Shown here piece by piece: positions 2,298 to 47,946 of a stretch of DNA of 64,000 bases (positions within the stretch are counted from its first letter, which is position 1; the number at the start of each line of letters is the position of its first letter). The notes under the pieces were generated by a model that was given only the letters and a program-made list of their open reading frames with translations, was not told the DNA's origin and did no database searches. The stretch is from NCBI RefSeq assembly GCF_000816845.1, contig NZ_CP006877.1, positions 3,908,501-3,972,500 of the forward strand. The letters run 5' to 3'. The position numbers and the translations under genes were made by a program. This DNA is from Rhizobium gallicum bv. gallicum R602sp. GTDB taxonomy: Bacteria > Pseudomonadota > Alphaproteobacteria > Rhizobiales > Rhizobiaceae.

Positions 2298-2476
2298 ATC
2301 TGCGGCTGATAAAATCCCTTCACCTTACGGCGATTTAACCCGATCGCGGGTTGCAAGGGCCTTGTTTGCAAAAGGTGAAAGGCTCATATTACCGGTAGGC
2401 ATGCTGGAGCTCCGCAGCGGCGCCCGGGTCGTATAGCCCGACACCGTATACCCATCGGAGCTTTTAAGAGGAAACT

Positions 2477-19235: not shown

Positions 19236-19329
19236 CTTTCCTGTTTACCGCCGCTCATTCTGTAACGAGCTTCAAGACTCGAGCCGCCGACCGGGACCCG
19301 ATAAGGTATAAAACGATCCCGGAGGTCCA

Positions 19330-19366
19330 CACCCGACAGCGCGATGCGCCCTCGGGTGCTTTTTGG
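19330..19366 (+). terminator. Terminator-like hairpin in the ffh leader
   Basis: CACCCGA (19330-19336) pairs with TCGGGTG (19352-19358), with an inner GCGC pairing, followed directly by CTTTTT. It lies about 80 bases before the ffh start with no gene between, so it may be an attenuator or the end of a short RNA. The rest of the 18821-19448 gap holds only the remnant and repeats listed separately. Confidence 0.5.
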
Positions 19367-40681: not shown

Positions 40682-41653
40682 TTACGAGAAGAGCATTGCC
40701 GAAAGCTTGCGCCGCGCGGACACCGTTGCCGGATCCTTGAAGCCCCAGACTTCGAAGAACTGCAGGAGTTGGCGGCGTGCGCCGTCGTCATCGAAGGTCC
40801 GGTCCTTGCGCATGATATGGAGCAGATGCTCGGCCGCCTCGTCGCGCTTTCCCTCGACGTTCAAGATCTTGGCAAGCTTCATGCGCGCATCATGGTTATC
40901 CGGATCGACTGCAAGGTCGTGTTCCAGAGCGATTGGATCACCGAGCTTGCGGGCTTCTTCGATCTGATCGAGCTTCGTGATGACGGCCTGAATCCCGGCG
41001 TCCTTGGCAAGCTCTTCCGGCAGATCGGTCAGCGCTTCGCGAGCGCGCTGATGCTGGTTGGCGGCAATCATGCATTCGGCCATCCCGGCAAGCGCCTTGG
41101 CATTTTCCGCATCGGCTTGCATGATCGCGCCGTAGAGTTGCGCGGCACCATTAACGTCGCCCGCGGCCAGAAGCCCCGCAGCCTCCTCGAGCACCGCTTC
41201 AATCTCCGCAGCCTGATCTGCACCAGCAGGACCGGCGATGCGGTCGATGAACTGGCGAACCTGGCTTTCCGGCACGGCACCCATGAAGCCATCGGCCGGG
41301 CGGCCGCCGACGAAAGCGATCACAGCCGGGATCGACTGGATGCCAAGCTGGCCTGCGATCGACGGATGGTCGTCGATGTTCATCTTCACGAGCTTCACGC
41401 GGCCTTGCGCTTCATTGACCACCTTTTCGAGCACTGGCGTCAATTGTTTGCACGGGCCGCACCAAGGCGCCCAGAAATCAACGAGTACGGGCTGGTTGCG
41501 CGATTCTTCGATGACGTCCTTCGTGAAAGTGGCGGTTGTCGTATCCTTGATATGTCCGCCGCCTGCCGCCGGCTGCGGCGCCGAACCGAAGTTCGCCGTT
41601 GCCGACATCTGACTGCCGAAGGAATTGCTGTAAGAATTGTCGCTGCCGCTCAT
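40682..41653 (-). CDS. cnoX: Thioredoxin-TPR chaperone-like protein (CnoX/YbbN type)
   Basis: A 323-residue cytoplasmic protein: a low-complexity leader, a thioredoxin domain with active site WAPWCGPCKQL (about residues 62-72) and the IQSIPAV cis-Pro motif, then a TPR-like helical C-terminal half (LLAAGDVNGAAQLYGAIMQADAENAKALAGMAECMI; LAVDPDNHDARMKLAKILNVEGKRDEAAEHLL). This matches the YbbN/CnoX holdase that protects proteins from oxidative aggregation and passes them to GroEL. Unlike E. coli CnoX (SxxC), the CGPC pair here is intact, so reductase activity is likely. Confidence 0.9.
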   Translation of the reverse strand: MSGSDNSYSNSFGSQMSATANFGSAPQPAAGGGHIKDTTTATFTKDVIEESRNQPVLVDFWAPWCGPCKQLTPVLEKVVNEAQGRVKLVKMNIDDHPSIAGQLGIQSIPAVIAFVGGRPADGFMGAVPESQVRQFIDRIAGPAGADQAAEIEAVLEEAAGLLAAGDVNGAAQLYGAIMQADAENAKALAGMAECMIAANQHQRAREALTDLPEELAKDAGIQAVITKLDQIEEARKLGDPIALEHDLAVDPDNHDARMKLAKILNVEGKRDEAAEHLLHIMRKDRTFDDDGARRQLLQFFEVWGFKDPATVSARRKLSAMLFS

Positions 41654-41707
41654 TGGTATCTCCCGCTGCGCCGGTTGCCCGGCTTTTTCTAGCGCTAAAA
41701 TCGTATG

Positions 41708-42217
41708 TCAGGCCGTCACTTTCAAGACAAGCGGCTTATGGCCGGTCGCTTCCATGAAGCGAATGAGATCTGCGCTTGCAATCGACGTCGTCGCATCGTT
41801 GGATAACGGATGGCAATTGACGACCTCCTCCTTCATCAAGTCCGCATCGAGCACGAAGGTCACATTGTTCCCCATGTCGTTGATGGCGCCAAAGGCGGTG
41901 ACCGCGCCGGGGATCACGCCAAGATACTCCATCAGCTTTTCCGCCTTGCCGAACGAAACCTTGCTGGCGGCGCCGATCAGCGCATGCACGGTCTTGAGAT
42001 CGACAACGGCATGTTCCTCGACCGTCAGCAGGAAGAACTGATCCTTCTTATCTTTCACGAAAAGGTTTTTTGTATGCCCGCCGGGAATAGCATCGCGCAG
42101 CGACACCGATTCGGCCACGGTGAAGACTGGAGCATGCTCATGCGTCCTGTGCGCGATGCCAAGCCCGTCGAGGAAGGCGAAAAGTTCGTTCTTGTTTTTC
42201 GGCTTGGTTTCGGTCAT
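41708..42217 (-). CDS. YbaK/ProXp-type aminoacyl-tRNA deacylase
   Basis: A 169-residue protein of the prolyl-tRNA synthetase-associated (YbaK/PrdX) family: LFAFLDGLGIAHRTHEHAPVFTVAESVSLRDAIPGGHTKNLFVKDKKDQFFLLTVEEHAVVDLK. The GGHTKNLFLKD pattern, with its conserved Lys, is typical of PrdX/ProXp-ala editing proteins that hydrolyse Ala-tRNAPro. The ATG at 42217 starts the conserved part; the upstream open frame was rejected. Confidence 0.88.
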   Translation of the reverse strand: MTETKPKNKNELFAFLDGLGIAHRTHEHAPVFTVAESVSLRDAIPGGHTKNLFVKDKKDQFFLLTVEEHAVVDLKTVHALIGAASKVSFGKAEKLMEYLGVIPGAVTAFGAINDMGNNVTFVLDADLMKEEVVNCHPLSNDATTSIASADLIRFMEATGHKPLVLKVTA

Positions 42218-42470
42218 CGCGGCATCCGTGCGGAAAGAAGGAGATAAGATGCCCTGATTAAGTCGGAGGGACGTGTTTTGCAATGTTCGGGATCGACGCT
42301 TACCCCTGAATTTGCGGCAGTTTGCCAAAGCGCCTCTGAAGGCGTGGGATTTTTCTTGGTCTTTGCGTGATTTCCCTGTTGCATTTAAAAATCGATTGGG
42401 CCATATAGCGCCCGTCGCCGCAAGGTGGCAGCCCACGGTCCACCAACTACCCCGGACCGATGCGGATTGA

Positions 42471-42545
42471 GCGGGTGTAGCTCAGGGGTAGAGCACAACC
42501 TTGCCAAGGTTGGGGTCGAGGGTTCAAATCCCTTCGCCCGCTCCA
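42471..42545 (+). tRNA. tRNA-Gly (anticodon GCC)
   Basis: A complete cloverleaf of 75 bases including an encoded CCA end: acceptor GCGGGTG pairs with CGCCCGC, D-arm GCTCAGGGGTAGAGC, anticodon stem-loop ACCTTGCCAAGGT with GCC at its centre, and T-arm GAGGGTTCAAATCCCTTC. Its 3' half is duplicated at 45346-45382, so it is an integration site. Confidence 0.97.
42500..42536 (+). repeat. attachment-site-like repeat, left copy (within tRNA-Gly)
   Basis: Bases 42500-42536, running from the anticodon stem-loop to the acceptor stem, are repeated at 45346-45382 with 35 of 37 identities. tRNA integrases typically use this part of the gene as att core. Confidence 0.6.
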
Positions 42546-42556
42546 GTTTCGCCTTT

Positions 42557-42600
42557 GTCCGACCCGGAGACATCGGTAACACTTTGTACCTAACACATGG
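42557..42600 (-). mobile_element. Terminal end of the IS481-family remnant
   Basis: TGTCCGACCCGGAGACATCG followed by GTAACACTTTGTACC is the familiar end sequence of rhizobial IS481 elements (on the minus strand GTTACCGATGTCTCCGGGTCGGACA). Joining across the IS3 element restores the transposase C-terminus ...RLSPMC and a stop. It begins 11 bases after the tRNA. Confidence 0.7.
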
Positions 42601-42629
42601 TGGACTGCACCCCTTTGGTGAGACAGCAA

Positions 42630-43640
42630 TCAGTAACAGTTCTCCCGGCTGTGAATTGCGTCTGGTGTCTCTTGCCGCTGTTGCAAGAGACTGGCTTCGT
42701 AAGCGTCCGGCGCGAGATAGTCGAGGGCCGAGTGCAGGCGCTGCCTGTTGTAGACCACCTCGATGAATTCGCCGATCCTAGTCCTTGCATCGTCCAGGTC
42801 GCGATACGCCTGACCATCCACCTCCTCTTCCTTCAGGGTCCTCATGAATCTCTCGGCCTTCGCATTATCGTAGGGATTGCCGACGCGGCTCATGCTCGGC
42901 TGGATGCCGTGGTCTGCAAGTCGTGCCGCATAGTCGGCGCAGGCATATTGGACGCCGCGGTCGCTATGGTGAATGACGCTATCAGGTCGCGGCCGGCGAG
43001 CCGCAACCGCCATGTCGAATGCCTCAATGGCAAGTTCCGCTTTCAGATGGGTTGCAATCGCCCAGCCGATGACCTTGCGACTGAAAGCGTCGAGGACGAT
43101 CGCCAGGAATGCGAACTCCTCGGCGAGATGAACGTAGGTGATGTCGGCGACCCAGAGCTGGTCGATGTCGGTCAGTTGAAGACCTCGAGCCAGGTTGGGC
43201 ACGATGCACCAGTCATGCCTGGAGTCGGTTGTCATCGGCACGAACGGGGATTTGCGCAGACACAGCAGATTATCCTCCCGCATCAGGCGCAGCACGCGCT
43301 TGTGGTTGGCACGCCAGCCTTCTCGGCTCAAAAGCACGGCGATTCTTCGGTAGCCGTAATGCCGGTTGGCGAGCGCCAGGCGTTGGAGGGTGTCGCGCAG
43401 CCCCATTTCCTCCCTGCGCGGCGCCGTCGCCTGCCAATGACGATAGTAGCCCGCGCGGCTCACCCGAGCCAGCCGGCACATTCGTTCCACACTGATTTGG
43501 CCTTGCAGCCCGGACGCCATCATCGCTTCGATGACCGTGTAGATGCCGTCCCGCCAGGCTTGCCACTCCGCTGGCGTGCTGTCCCGACGTGCTGCAAGGC
43601 CTTTTGAAAAAATCAATATCGGCCGCTTGCTGTCCGACAA
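42630..43640 (-). CDS. IS3-family transposase OrfB (DDE integrase)
   Basis: A 336-codon open frame. It has an HTH_21-like block (VERMCRLARVSRAGYYRHWQA), then an rve integrase core with Asp in LWVADITYVHL, Asp in IHHSDRGVQYACADY and Glu in NAKAERFMRTLKEEEV, the DDE triad. The frame begins in the overlap with orfA at a TTG without a ribosome site, so OrfB is probably made only as an OrfAB fusion. The fusion needs a shift at the six-T run (43607-43612): dropping one T there joins the two frames into one. Confidence 0.9.
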   Translation of the reverse strand: MSDSKRPILIFSKGLAARRDSTPAEWQAWRDGIYTVIEAMMASGLQGQISVERMCRLARVSRAGYYRHWQATAPRREEMGLRDTLQRLALANRHYGYRRIAVLLSREGWRANHKRVLRLMREDNLLCLRKSPFVPMTTDSRHDWCIVPNLARGLQLTDIDQLWVADITYVHLAEEFAFLAIVLDAFSRKVIGWAIATHLKAELAIEAFDMAVAARRPRPDSVIHHSDRGVQYACADYAARLADHGIQPSMSRVGNPYDNAKAERFMRTLKEEEVDGQAYRDLDDARTRIGEFIEVVYNRQRLHSALDYLAPDAYEASLLQQRQETPDAIHSRENCY

Positions 43641-43938
43641 GCCGCTCTAATTCCGCAATCCGCGCAAGCGCTCTCAAGAGTTCGTCGCTCGAGGAAGACT
43701 GCAGCGCGCCAGCTTCCGGTTGCTCATCGCTCGCTGCTGCGTCTCGCTGCGGACGTCCGCCTTCTCGCAACGCCGACGCTGCGCCAACTCGGAACTGCTT
43801 TTGCCACTGATAAAGGCCCTTGCGCGAAATCCCCAACTCGCGAGCAAGCTTGCTGACATTGGCGCCGGCAGCCATTCGCTGAACCGCTGCCAGCTTAACC
43901 TCGCGACTGAACCGCCGCCCAGGATCGTCCGTCCTCAT
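43270..43938 (-). CDS. IS3-family transposase OrfA
   Basis: It starts at the ATG at 43938 behind a perfect AGGAGG. The first 110 codons are OrfA: an HTH (REVKLAAVQRMAAGANVSKLARELGISRKGLYQWQKQF) and a leucine-zipper-like helix ending in ELERLVGQQAADIDFF. After the six-T run the zero frame continues without similarity, antiparallel in meaning to orfB codons, to a stop at 43270. The real OrfA product therefore probably ends or slips near 43607. Confidence 0.8.
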   Translation of the reverse strand: MRTDDPGRRFSREVKLAAVQRMAAGANVSKLARELGISRKGLYQWQKQFRVGAASALREGGRPQRDAAASDEQPEAGALQSSSSDELLRALARIAELERLVGQQAADIDFFKRPCSTSGQHASGVASLAGRHLHGHRSDDGVRAARPNQCGTNVPAGSGEPRGLLSSLAGDGAAQGGNGAARHPPTPGARQPALRLPKNRRAFEPRRLACQPQARAAPDAGG

Positions 43939-43997
43939 TAGTCCTCCTAACGGAGAACTGTTACCATGCTTTTGTCTCAAAATCGGGGAGCACTACA

Positions 43998-44280
43998 ATG
44001 GGTGACAACCTCGTGCCGAACGGGTTGTCGATGGTTTGCAAAGTCCTCTGCTCCAGGTCGATATATCCCAGATCATAATGCATGAAGCTGACGAGCCAAA
44101 TGCCGTCGTCGACTTCCTTGATTCCCAGTTTCTGGCCGGCCAGCACGGTCGAGATGTTGACCTTCTTGCGATAGATGCAGATGCGGCCGCAATTGGCGAC
44201 CAGCGCATCTCTGTAATCGATCCCGACCAGGCCACAAGCCATCGTTTGGAAGAATTCTCTTTTTGCCGGCACGCACCTAG
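43998..44280 (-). pseudogene. C-terminal remnant of an IS481-family transposase
   Basis: The minus strand encodes NCGRICIYRKKVNISTVLAG and then QKLGIKEVDDGIWLVSFMHYDLGYIDLEQRTLQTIDNPFGTRLSP, the C-terminus of a common rhizobial IS481 transposase. The integrase core and N-terminus are missing: similarity fades at about 44230 and the fragment abuts an IS66 scrap at 44280. The final Met-Cys-stop is displaced to the other side of the IS3 element. Confidence 0.82.
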
Positions 44281-44400
44281 GCGACCATCGCAACGCTCAT
44301 TCAGACCGCCAAGATGAACGATGTCGATCCGCTGGCATGGTTGGCGCAGACCCTCGAGCGCATCGCAGCGGGTGGCCAGCCAGCGAAATCGAACCCTCAT
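44281..44400 (+). pseudogene. IS66-family transposase (TnpC) C-terminal scrap
   Basis: The plus strand reads ATIATLIQTAKMNDVDPLAWLAQTLERIAAG, the signature C-terminal end of IS66 TnpC. It is then followed by frameshifted remains of the usual GWPASEIDALMPWN ending (GGQPAKSNPHAVKF in the zero frame). Only about 40 codons survive. Confidence 0.8.
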
Positions 44401-44460
44401 GCCGTGAAATTTTGCAATGTAACGGCCTTTGTTCATCGCTTGCCACGCAAGGCGCCCGGT

Positions 44461-45042
44461 TTAGGCCACTATGAAATCATAGCGGCCGAATTTTCCGTCG
44501 CTCGTCGCCCTGACATCGAGCAACAAGGCTGCGTTGAATATCCGGTCACGTTCATTGTCCGGCTCGCCGGGAAAATAAAGCTGCGTCGTCAGCACGTTTC
44601 CGCCGGGCCGTTGGACTTTCAGGTGGTAATGCCGGGTGCGGCCGGGATAGACCCCTGGCACGATCGTCTCAAACCACCATTTGCCTTCAGCATCGGTGAA
44701 TTGATGCCCGCGGAGTTTGTATCCGCTGTTGTCATAGGTGCCAATCTCATTGGCGTGCCACAACTCGATCAACGCTTTTGCGACGGGCTGGCAGTTCTCG
44801 GTCAGTACGTAACCGGCAAGCGTCATCGGTTCACCGCCCGGTGCATCGCTCGCGAAATCCTGTTTTTCAGGGCTCTCCGGCGTGAAATACGGGCCTTCGG
44901 TCTGCGCTGGCGTCAGATCGTCGTCATCATCGCAAGTTGGTGTGCGCGACAGCTGCACAGGAACGCCGGCTGCATGGCTGAGTCTCGAAAGCACAATCGG
45001 CGTGGCAACGAAGCCCATAAGGAAATGTCGCCGGGTCGGCAT
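44461..45042 (-). CDS. Exported intradiol ring-cleavage dioxygenase family protein
   Basis: A 193-residue protein with a twin-arginine-type signal (MPTRRHFLMGFVATPIVLSRLSHA) followed by an intradiol dioxygenase beta-sandwich: TPAQTEGPYFTPESP, ALIELWHANEIGTYD, GKWWFETIVPGVYPGRTRHYHLKV. The Fe(III) ligand set Tyr, Tyr, His, His can be placed in GTYD, VYPGRTRHYH (Tyr plus two His). Secreted single-domain members cleave aromatic diols such as catechols, but the substrate is unknown. It lies inside the tRNA-bounded island remnant beside transposase scraps, with no catabolic partners nearby. Confidence 0.85.
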   Translation of the reverse strand: MPTRRHFLMGFVATPIVLSRLSHAAGVPVQLSRTPTCDDDDDLTPAQTEGPYFTPESPEKQDFASDAPGGEPMTLAGYVLTENCQPVAKALIELWHANEIGTYDNSGYKLRGHQFTDAEGKWWFETIVPGVYPGRTRHYHLKVQRPGGNVLTTQLYFPGEPDNERDRIFNAALLLDVRATSDGKFGRYDFIVA

Positions 45043-45345
45043 GGCGTTTTATCTCCCTAACATGCAAACCAAGATCCTTGCGGCTCCATTGGGCAGAAGT
45101 GGGGCGGGTCGCAAGGAATTTGGGTACTGACAAGTTGTAGCGGCGCGCAGGGCCAAATGCCTTGCTGTTGGCTGCGGTAAGGGCGCGGTCACAGTCACCG
45201 GATTTCGGCCACGTGCAATCTATTTCCACGAGCGTGTTATGCACTTCGCGCCACAATCATCGAGCGCTCCGCGCAAAAACCGCTCCTTTTAAAACTGAAG
45301 CGAATTCTGCCGTACGGGCACGATTCTACGACGTCGTACTTTATG

Positions 45346-45382
45346 CTTGCCAAGGTTGGGGGCGAGGGTTCAAATTCCTTCG
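45346..45382 (+). repeat. attachment-site-like repeat, right copy (tRNA-Gly 3' half)
   Basis: CTTGCCAAGGTTGGGGGCGA followed by GGGTTCAAATTCCTTCG repeats 42500-42536 with two mismatches, and no acceptor or D-arm precedes it, so it is not a tRNA gene. The surrounding 45043-45577 gap (535 bases) is otherwise without a recognisable gene; a plausible minus-strand frame at 45050-45256 has no similarity I recognise. Confidence 0.65.
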
Positions 45383-45577
45383 ACTCTCAAGTTTTCGTAT
45401 GAATACCAAATATTTACAATAACCCGCCGTAAGTCGATTTAGTGTTTTAAATCCATGTCGCCACGTCAGCGCCAAAACGACCGATCGCAACCATTTGCCG
45501 CACTATCTGAAAAGAATTTGATTTGCGCGCAATGCATCGCCATGTTGGGCGAGGGCGGGCAACGGTTGGTTTGATGT

Positions 45578-46909
45578 ATGCTGCAACGAATTGACGACAC
45601 GGATGCCGCCCTGATCGACAGGCTGCAGAAATCCGCATTCGACTATTTTCTGAGATATTCCAATCCCGAAAACGGCCTGGTCGCGGATACGTCAGTGGCC
45701 GGGGTTCCTTGCAGCATCGCTGCCGTCGGCTTTGCGCTCTCCAGCTATGCAGTCGCCGCCGAACGCGGATGGATGACGCGCCGAGAAGCGGCAGGCAGGT
45801 CAGTCACGACGCTGCGTTTCTTTGCCGGGAGCCATCAGGGACGCGAACGCCACGCGACCGGCTATCGCGGCTTCTATTACCACTTCCTGCATATGGATAG
45901 CGGCCACAGGGCCTGGAACAGCGAGCTCTCGACAATCGACACGACCTTGCTCGTCGCCGGCATGCTGACGGCTGCGGCCTATTTCGATCGGACCGATGCG
46001 GTGGAGACGGAAATCCGCGAGCTTGCGAAATTCATCTATGAGCGCATCGACTGGCATTGGGCGTTGAACAAGGGGCAGACTGTCAGTATGGGGTGGAAGC
46101 CAGGCAGTGGTTTTCTGCGCTGGCGCTGGCAGGGATACGACGAAGCGATCCTGCTCTATATGCTGGCACTTGCTTCGCCGACCCATCCAATCCCGCCATC
46201 GAGCTACGATGCCTTCGTCTCAAGCTATTCCTGGATGCTCTTCGGCAAGCAGCCCTATCTCTATGCTGGACCGTTCTTCATTCACCTTTTCCCGCATGCC
46301 TGGATCGACTTCCGCGGGATTAACGACAAAGAGATGGCCGCCCGCGACTGGGACTATTTCCGCAACACACAGGTTTCGATCGCCGTGCAGCGCGATTATG
46401 CCGAGCGCAACCCCGGACACTTCGTTGGCTACAATAAGGATGTCTGGGGACTTTCCGCCTCCGACGGCCCGCCTCCAACGCGCAACATGCGTGGCGGCCG
46501 GCGTCAGAAGGTTCTGGGTTACGCCGCCCGCGGTGCACCGCTTGGCCCGGATGACGGGACAATTGCACCTTGGGCGGCGGTTGCGGCATTGCCCTTTGAC
46601 CGGCAGGCGTCGCTTGATGGCCTAAAGGCGCTGCTCGCCGCCTATCCTGATCTGCTCTGCGAAGGCCGCTTTCCAGGTGGCTTCAACCCGACGGTGAAGA
46701 CTGCTCGGCCTGAAGGCTGGGTCGACGATCGATGCGTCGCGATCGACCAAGGACTGCTGGTGATGACGGTCGAAAACGACCGGTCGGAGTTCATCTGGAA
46801 CCTGATGCGGCAGTCGCCGGTCATCCGTCTCGGCCTTGAACGCGCCGGTTTTACGGGCGGCTGGCTGGAGCAGGCGGAAACGGAAAGGGTTTCGCGAAAG
46901 ACGGCTTAA
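45578..46909 (+). CDS. Glycoamylase-family protein (GH144/PF10091 type)
   Basis: A 443-residue protein of the glycoamylase domain family, which includes GH144 endo-beta-1,2-glucanases and the C-terminal domain of cyclic beta-1,2-glucan synthase. Signatures: LQKSAFDYFLRYSNPENGLVADTS, ATGYRGFYYHFLHMDSG, LSTIDTTLLVAGMLTAAAYF, PHAWIDFRGINDKEM and VWGLSASDGP. No signal peptide is visible, so it may act in the cytoplasm on beta-1,2-glucan or another glucan. It begins 195 bases after the right att-like repeat and may be the first chromosomal gene beyond the island. Its stop overlaps the fbpC stop by 4 bases. Confidence 0.85.
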   Translation: MLQRIDDTDAALIDRLQKSAFDYFLRYSNPENGLVADTSVAGVPCSIAAVGFALSSYAVAAERGWMTRREAAGRSVTTLRFFAGSHQGRERHATGYRGFYYHFLHMDSGHRAWNSELSTIDTTLLVAGMLTAAAYFDRTDAVETEIRELAKFIYERIDWHWALNKGQTVSMGWKPGSGFLRWRWQGYDEAILLYMLALASPTHPIPPSSYDAFVSSYSWMLFGKQPYLYAGPFFIHLFPHAWIDFRGINDKEMAARDWDYFRNTQVSIAVQRDYAERNPGHFVGYNKDVWGLSASDGPPPTRNMRGGRRQKVLGYAARGAPLGPDDGTIAPWAAVAALPFDRQASLDGLKALLAAYPDLLCEGRFPGGFNPTVKTARPEGWVDDRCVAIDQGLLVMTVENDRSEFIWNLMRQSPVIRLGLERAGFTGGWLEQAETERVSRKTA

Positions 46910-47946
46910 GGGCGGCCGAAGACATGCGCCTTGCCGGCGATATCAAGGCGAACACGATCGCCGCGTTCGGGCAAGGCCACGCTGGATGTCTTGATGAAGA
47001 TCGGCGGCAGCGCCACGCCTTCCAGCGACACCGCCACGGTGCAGGTTGCGCCGCCGAACTCGACCTCGACGACACGACCACCATAGGCGGGCTCGCTTTC
47101 ATCGGCAACGACGCGAATCTGCTCCGGCCGCAGCATGATCTCGGCCTTGCCTTGATGGCTGCCTTCCACTGCGACGCGGCCGAGCGCGCAATCGGCAAAG
47201 CCATTTCGGACAATTGCCGGAAGCATCACCGCATCGCCCAGGAAAAGGGCGGTCTCGCGGTCCTTCGGCTGCAGGTAGAGCGATTGCGGTGAACCTGCTT
47301 GGATCAGCTTGCCTTCCCTGAGCACCGCGACCTGATCGGCAAAGGAGAGAGCCTCTGCCTGATCATGGGTTACGAGTATCGTCGTGATATCGGCCGTCTG
47401 CAGCACGCGCGCGACAGCCTTGCGCATGTGTTCGCGAAGGCCGGTATCGAGCGCCGAGAAGGGCTCGTCGAGCAGCATGAGGCGCGGCTTGCGGCCGAGG
47501 GCTCTCGCCAGTGCCACGCGCTGCTGCTGGCCGCCGGAAAGCTGGTGGGGACGGCGCGTCAGCATGTTGCGGTCGAGCTCGACCATATCCAGTAGTTCGA
47601 CGATCCGCTTTTTGCGATCGGGAGCGCCCCGTTCGAAGCCGAAGCCGATATTGTCGGCAACGCTCAAATGCGGGAAGAGCGCACCGTCCTGCGAGACGAT
47701 GCCGATGCCGCGCTTGTGCGCGGGAACGGCTGCCGCTCCATCGGCGAGCACTTCGCCGTTCAGGACGACCTGCCCTTCATCGGGCCGCTCGAAGCCGGCG
47801 ACGATGCGCAGCAATGTCGTTTTGCCGGAACCTGAGGGGCCGACGACGGCGGTGCGGCTGCCGGCGGCCACGTCCAGCGTCACCTTGTCCAGCGCTGTCA
47901 CTGGGCCATAGCGCTTGCTGACAGACTGGATCGTAAGCAAGGTCAT
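46906..47946 (-). CDS. fbpC: Fe(III) ABC transporter ATP-binding protein
   Basis: A 346-residue importer ATPase: Walker [19 protein letters not shown] (about residues 36-53), signature [15 protein letters not shown], Walker [14 protein letters not shown]-loop VTHDQAEAL, then a TOBE-type C-terminal regulatory domain. With the neighbouring FbpA/FbpB-like proteins it forms a ferric-iron (AfuABC/FbpABC) uptake system; polyamine or sulfate ATPases look similar, and context decides. It overlaps fbpB by 4 bases. Confidence 0.92.

What the first reader, a model, noticed from the sequence alone, without database searches (positions are those of the whole stretch)
42471..45382. Remnant of an element integrated at tRNA-Gly(GCC), bounded by 37-base direct repeats
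The 3' half of the tRNA (42500-42536) is repeated at 45346-45382 with 35 of 37 identities. Only transposase scraps, one intact insertion sequence and a secreted intradiol dioxygenase lie between, with no integrase. This fits a genomic island that lost its integrase and most cargo, leaving the dioxygenase as surviving cargo. Such repeats are the established mark of tRNA-targeting integrases; that this is one is inference.
Basis: partly seen in the sequence, partly recalled or inferred. Interest (0 to 1): 0.7.

Follow-up and report, generated by a model that had tools for sequence, protein, structure and literature searches.

The report
Island scar hit by tRNA-seeking transposon
The repeat marks the scar of an old genomic island at a glycine tRNA gene, and the scrap beside that tRNA is the relic of a bacterial jumping gene whose relatives insert about ten bases behind tRNA genes of many kinds.

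Summary
Observation confirmed: 37-nt repeats (35/37) at 42500-42536 and 45346-45382. The island reading is supported: relative G021 has an empty site, and three congeners (G104, G069, G062) carry complete islands at the same tRNA-Gly(GCC), with the same repeat and a tyrosine recombinase just inside the right copy. The window has lost that integrase; a dioxygenase gene survives intact in five genomes.

Less expected are the 'transposase scraps' next to the tRNA: the end of an IS481-family insertion sequence starting 10 nt after the tRNA CCA, split by an IS3. Of 109 ends of this IS examined in the genus, 84 lie behind a called tRNA gene (83 at 9-12 nt, one at 19), at 16 anticodon types, in one orientation. 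Relatives down to about 60% identity, from genomes or bins labelled as five phyla, mostly do the same; the 10 evaluable transposases at 43% or less do not. Copies without a called tRNA often have a T-arm motif (GGTTCRANTCC) at the same spacing (8 of 23 in the genus, 7 of 8 on plasmids), and displaced tRNA halves are hit too. The target is therefore probably T-arm DNA itself. Nine full-text searches found no such report; ISfinder could not be consulted.

The parts
42471..42545 (+). tRNA-Gly(GCC), restored left junction (attL)
   Evidence: ARAGORN; Rfam
42500..42536 (+). left copy of the 37-nt direct repeat, from the anticodon loop to near the 3' end
42521..42531 (+). T-arm motif GGTTCAAATCC, 35 nt before the IS481 end
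42556..42600 (-). IS481-family relic, first part (IS nt 1-45), starting 10 nt after CCA; transposase would read toward the tRNA
42601..43997 (-). IS3-family insertion sequence, 1397 bp, flanked by ATGG (42597-42600 and 43998-44001)
   Evidence: read; family; second identical copy
43998..44220 (-). IS481-family relic, second part (IS nt 42-264), 94% identical to the intact copy L063
44314..44466 (+). IS66 C-terminal scrap (weak)
   Evidence: PF13817 25.2 bits, below cut-off 30
44461..45042 (-). intradiol dioxygenase-like gene, 193 aa, surviving cargo
   Evidence: PF00775; dN/dS
45346..45382 (+). right copy of the repeat: displaced original tRNA 3' half (attR)
45578..46909 (+). glycoamylase-like gene of the native right flank
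   Evidence: PF10091; conserved next to the tRNA in G021

Best explanation
Two layers. (1) An island with a tyrosine recombinase integrated into tRNA-Gly(GCC); the island's copy of the 3' half restored the tRNA and the original half was pushed to 45346. Integrase and most cargo were later lost; the dioxygenase gene was kept. (2) An IS481-family insertion sequence landed 10 nt behind the restored tRNA. It belongs to a clade whose transposase, I infer, recognises the T-arm sequence of tRNA genes (GGTTCRANTCC) as DNA and inserts mostly 34-35 bp from the start of that motif (9-11 nt after CCA), nearly always with the transposase gene reading toward the tRNA, making a 3-bp duplication and leaving the tRNA intact. 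An IS3 later split the relic. Shown: empty site, islands with integrase, spacing, orientation, duplication, motif enrichment where no tRNA is called, insertion behind displaced tRNA halves. Inferred: crossover in the anticodon loop, order of events, and that the transposase itself reads the motif.
For: Island: empty site in G021; islands with tyrosine recombinases at the same repeat in G104, G069, G062. IS: 84 of 109 IS ends behind a called tRNA, spacing 9 (33), 10 (44), 11 (5), 12 (1), 19 (1), 16 anticodon types. 3-bp duplication in 17 of 28 full copies against a shuffled mean of 2.2 and maximum of 7, and in a direct comparison of G101 with the empty site of the own genome. T-arm motif with at least 9 of 10 matches at 33-35 nt in 8 of 23 ends without a called tRNA, 0.006 expected; on plasmids, 10 of 10 records read have the motif (8 to 10 of 10 matches) at 33-36 nt although only 2 have a called tRNA. 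IS also behind displaced tRNA halves in G138 (10 nt) and G069 (8 nt, L158). Outside the genus, 59 of 99 evaluable loci have a tRNA and 12 more a T-arm motif at the same spacing; the trait follows one transposase clade.
Against: 15 of the 23 genus ends without a called tRNA lack a strong motif at that spacing; L122 is a full copy without one. 18 of 89 evaluable loci of about 60% identity or more show neither tRNA nor motif, seven of them one Bradyrhizobium group. L286 is inserted the other way round. Ten of 28 full copies show no clean duplication. No binding or transposition data exist. For the island: the carriers are not one clade in the flank-gene tree (two changes needed), and the window keeps no integrase.
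Confidence: 0.85

Rival explanations
1. The second repeat is not an att scar: a tandem duplication of the tRNA, or the IS481 element carrying off a tRNA half, produced the repeat and caught the dioxygenase in between.
For: IS481 relics sit beside the repeats in this clade, and in G138 beside both copies.
Against: The same tRNA half bounds islands with a tyrosine recombinase in three congeners; none of the intact IS copies was seen to carry a tRNA half; the G021 empty site fits simple integration.
Confidence: 0.06
2. The IS follows the tRNA transcription or processing machinery, or another host factor, not the T-arm DNA.
For: Most insertions are behind functional-looking tRNA genes. In eukaryotes some elements reach tRNA genes through host proteins (passage on TRE5-A in PMC3706591).
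Against: Insertions behind displaced tRNA halves that have lost the 5' half and promoter (G138, G069) and beside T-arm motifs on plasmids with no called tRNA. In L286 the tRNA has no encoded CCA, yet a spacing of 34 is kept.
Confidence: 0.2
3. There is no targeting: the IS inserts anywhere, but only copies behind tRNA genes survive because they are harmless there.
For: Insertions just behind a tRNA are presumably harmless (general knowledge).
Against: Harmlessness does not explain a spacing of 9-12 nt in 83 of 84, one orientation, or the motif at the same spacing away from tRNA genes. Related IS481 members at 43% identity or less show no such bias (0 of 10).
Confidence: 0.02

Closest known systems
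Genomic islands with tyrosine recombinases at tRNA genes
   Same: Direct repeat of a tRNA 3' half, tRNA restored, empty site in a relative, integrases of this type at the same tRNA in congeners.
   Different: Integrase and most cargo missing here; only about 1.45 kb is left without the IS3.
IS481 family of insertion sequences
   Same: Transposase matches NCBIfam IS481 (224.6 bits, cut-off 224) and Pfam rve and HTH models; ends begin with TGT.
   Different: Fixed position and orientation behind tRNA genes; I found no such report for the family in nine answered searches.
Tn7-like elements with a tRNA-targeting TnsD (types I-B2 and I-D CAST)
   Same: DDE elements inserting a fixed distance downstream of tRNA genes (PMC11406308, PMC10293859; passages read).
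   Different: These need several proteins and insert about 30-33 nt beyond the tRNA end; here one gene of about 400 codons and 9-12 nt.
IS1202 family (ISAjo2 type) at dif and pdif sites
   Same: Small IS at fixed distance and orientation beside a conserved site (PMC10132070; abstract and passages read).
   Different: dif sites, 5-bp duplications and 1.5 kb there; T-arm sites, 3-bp duplications and 1.3 kb here.
Dada transposons of eukaryotes
   Same: DDE elements that use tRNA genes as targets (PMC3706591; passages read).
   Different: Insert inside the tRNA or snRNA gene with 6-7 bp duplications; each family has its own RNA gene.

Membership tests
tRNA-targeting island with tyrosine recombinase | direct repeat of the tRNA 3' part at both ends | tested here: met
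   35 of 37
tRNA-targeting island with tyrosine recombinase | empty site in a relative | tested here: met
   G021
tRNA-targeting island with tyrosine recombinase | integrase gene in the element | tested here: not met
   absent in the window; so this is a remnant, not an element. Present in three congeners' islands at the same site
IS481 family | transposase passes the family model | tested here: met
   NF033577: L063 protein 224.6 bits against cut-off 224; 27 of 27 alignment members match it at E<=0.001, their scores against the cut-off were not shown
IS481 family | TGT terminal inverted repeats and target duplication | tested here: met
   ends read; 3-bp duplication in 17 of 28
IS481 family | window copy complete | tested here: not met
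   only IS nt 1-264 remain
Tn7-like element | partner proteins TnsA/TnsC/TnsD beside the transposase | not tested
   both ends of intact copies enclose one long frame in 1.3 kb; genes outside the element were not examined
IS1202 family | 5-bp duplication next to a dif or pdif site | tested here: not met
   3-bp duplication and T-arm sites; the transposase was not compared directly with IS1202

The most novel reading that the evidence does not exclude
A clade of IS481 transposases, found in genomes or bins labelled as five phyla, reads the T-arm of tRNA genes directly as DNA and inserts about 34-35 bp from it in one orientation, with one protein and no guide RNA: a bacterial counterpart of the B-box-guided tRNA-seeking elements of eukaryotes.
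Probability: 0.72. Interest if true: 0.82.

Novelty: new variant of a known kind. Interest (0 to 1): 0.72.

Why it matters
Safe-haven integration by DDE elements is best known from the multi-protein Tn7 group. A transposase of about 400 residues that alone finds many different tRNA genes would be a simple model for protein-guided target choice and a possible tool for harmless insertion in many bacteria. It also warns annotators that a transposase scrap next to a tRNA need not be island cargo, and it shows that att scars left by islands become fresh targets for this IS.

Tried and rejected
Chance repeat: rejected. Dispersed repeat: rejected. Hidden integrase relic in 45043-45345, in 43998-45345, or in the extra DNA of G051 and G040: tblastn with three island integrases gave E-values of 0.27 or worse. 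Guide RNA inside the IS: not favoured; the best T-arm match inside the L063 IS is 7 of 10 on either strand and the element is almost all coding. Solved structures: no sequence match. AlphaFold model of the transposase: mean pLDDT 61.3, pTM 0.32, too weak for a fold search; it suggests N-terminal helices, a mixed middle and a C-terminal beta region. Phylum-level search: 10 of 398 genomes matched, 8 of which had already matched in the order-level search. PLSDB gave no features around the Sinorhizobium meliloti pSymB copy, so ARAGORN was used. In Ensifer adhaerens L323 ARAGORN finds no tRNA; the later motif check found the T-arm motif 35 nt before the IS. Literature: nine answered searches returned no report of IS481 members targeting tRNA genes, judged from titles, abstract starts and passages of five papers; the library holds open-licence papers only.
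Full report
THE OBSERVATION. The repeat is real: 42500-42536 and 45346-45382 agree in 35 of 37 positions and form the longest direct repeat in 41000-47000. The first copy is the 3' half of tRNA-Gly(GCC), 42471-42545, from the anticodon loop on. A genus search with 44440-45382 gave two matching places in the own genome, so the repeat is not dispersed. Between the copies lie an IS3-family element (42601-43997, ATGG on both sides, a second 100% copy in the genome), an IS481-family relic split by it, a weak IS66 scrap and a dioxygenase-like gene. No integrase trace was found.

THE ISLAND READING IS SUPPORTED. I searched 148 genomes of the genus with the tRNA region and the right flank. In G021 the flank match begins inside the tRNA at the base equivalent to 42500, and the sequence continues collinearly past the position of 45382 (86% over 45346-45700). 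G122, G115 and G136 also align from the tRNA half on through the flank, at 63-71%; G092, G144 and G105 align only in pieces. G101 carries the same insert without the IS3; G051 and G040 carry it with extra DNA; G138 carries the dioxygenase and a second tRNA half. In G104 (13.8 kb between repeats), G069 (18.9 kb) and G062 (about 91 kb) a tyrosine recombinase (PF13356 + PF00589; 432, 458 and 467 aa; 48-60% identical) starts about 130-190 nt inside the right repeat. G050 has the repeat on two contigs; the large genes tested beside them are a type I restriction subunit and a DUF6119 protein, not an integrase. So this tRNA is a recurrent integrase target and the window shows a degraded product.

CARGO AND HISTORY. 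The dioxygenase ORF is intact in 5 of 5 genomes with the remnant. Pairwise dN/dS is 0.17-0.25 in eight of ten pairs and 0.51 and 0.61 in two close pairs, so the gene appears to be kept by selection. A tree of the flanking glycoamylase gene puts G021 beside the four closest carriers and pairs G138 with G137, which lacks the remnant and has about 13 kb of other DNA there. Presence needs at least two changes: two gains, or one gain with losses. I cannot decide; the clean tRNA of G021 would fit precise excision.

THE SCRAP BESIDE THE tRNA. Just after the tRNA the window holds nt 1-264 of an IS481-family element, its TGTCC end starting 10 nt after CCA. The own genome has another relic of the same end 10 nt after a tRNA-Met(CAT). 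A genus search with this end matched 88 of 148 genomes. Three of the 110 have no IS end, one of them the window copy itself because the IS3 cuts it; two carry a second end, giving 109 ends. Of these, 84 have an ARAGORN tRNA upstream on the same strand, with 9 (33 cases), 10 (44), 11 (5), 12 (1) or 19 (1) nt between; 16 anticodon types are hit. In all 84 the transposase gene points toward the tRNA.

THE FULL ELEMENT. L063 is 1299 bp with one long frame. The protein passes the IS481 model narrowly (224.6 bits, cut-off 224) and matches Pfam rve and HTH models. Among 28 copies with both ends found, 17 show a 3-bp duplication against a shuffled mean of 2.2 and maximum of 7; one more shows 4 bp. G101 carries a copy at tRNA-Arg(TCT) where the own genome is empty, and the two flanks overlap by 3 nt there.

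WHAT IS RECOGNISED. In the 84 tRNA sites the motif GGTTCRANTCC starts 34-37 nt before the IS in 83 and 44 nt in one; being part of every tRNA it says little by itself. The ends without a called tRNA are the test: 25 in all, 2 at contig edges. Of the other 23, 8 have the motif with at least 9 of 10 matches, all at 33-35 nt, against 0.006 expected from shuffles. Two of the 8 (L158, L159) are tRNA-Gly derived; L158 is the displaced half at the right end of the G069 island, 8 nt from the IS. In G138 the IS lies 10 nt behind the displaced half. The other 15 lack a strong motif at that spacing; several keep only an acceptor-stem-like end plus CCA, and L122 is a full copy with no good motif. As a further check I read 10 of the 124 plasmid records that match the IS (fetched). 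Only 2 have a called tRNA, yet all 10 have the motif at 33-36 nt from the IS: of the 8 without a called tRNA, 7 with 9 or 10 of 10 matches and 1 with 8. L326 and L331 look tRNA-like with CCA; most of the others do not.

HOW WIDE. Of the 110 loci were evaluable; 59 have a tRNA on the opposite strand 50-54 nt after the transposase C-terminus and 12 more a T-arm motif at the same spacing. The 89 evaluable loci at about 60% identity or more hold all 71 of these and 18 with neither; the 10 evaluable loci at 43% or less have none. Hosts include bins labelled Acidobacteriota, Armatimonadota, Elusimicrobiota and Actinomycetota besides Pseudomonadota; I cannot verify bin labels. The loci are not independent: some repeat places of the genus set (L236 and L112 lie on contigs of equal length), some are near-copies or two parts of one copy. 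In a tree of 95 rows (midpoint root, long outgroup branches), 84 lie on one side of a branch with support 100/98: 58 tRNA, 12 T-arm, 14 neither; the 11 rows on the other side have neither. Seven of the 14 are a Bradyrhizobium group. L286 is inserted the other way round, with the T-arm 34 nt from its other end and no encoded CCA. G552 has four near-identical copies behind tRNA-Met, -Asn, -Arg and -His. In Sinorhizobium meliloti 1021 a copy (67.9% identical DNA) begins 10 nt after the pSymB tRNA-Arg(CCG).

MECHANISM. I think the transposase binds T-arm DNA and inserts at a fixed distance, like a one-protein version of Tn7 homing. Shown: spacing, orientation, duplication, motif enrichment, insertions behind half tRNAs, association with one clade. 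Inferred: direct recognition by the protein. The element is almost all coding and its best internal match to the motif is 7 of 10, which gives no support for a guide RNA. An AlphaFold model was too weak to use.

KNOWN OR NEW. Islands at tRNA genes are textbook knowledge. For the IS, the nearest published systems I saw are Tn7-like elements with TnsD, one of which inserts about 30-33 nt beyond a tRNA (PMC11406308 and PMC10293859, passages), IS1202-family elements beside dif sites (PMC10132070, abstract and passages) and Dada transposons (PMC3706591, passages). Nine answered searches returned no report of IS481 members behind tRNA genes. ISfinder and subscription papers were not available, so 'unreported' is provisional.

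Noticed in passing
L322 (Sinorhizobium meliloti 1021 pSymB), 2413-2510: A copy of the same IS group begins 10 nt after the pSymB tRNA-Arg(CCG), in a model organism, with no annotation in the PLSDB record.
   Followed up: partly
L286, 1880-2020: Reversed insertion: the other IS end lies 34 nt from the T-arm of a tRNA-Arg without encoded CCA.
   Followed up: partly
L078, L140, L153, L254, L263, L278: IS copies with only an acceptor-stem-like end plus CCA left upstream; how the rest of the tRNA was lost is unexplained.
   Followed up: no
L326 (Rhizobium sp. Pop5 plasmid), 540-601: Intact IS behind a tRNA-like 3' end with CCA that ARAGORN does not call, between genes annotated as an RNA-binding protein and RtcB.
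   Followed up: no
L197, L198, L199-L200, L201: Islands of 14, 19 and about 91 kb at the same tRNA-Gly in congeners, and a type I restriction gene beside a repeat copy in G050; cargo not described further.
   Followed up: partly
window 2396-2465 and 19315-19366: Rfam matches above gathering score: ybhL leader and ffh sRNA.
   Followed up: no
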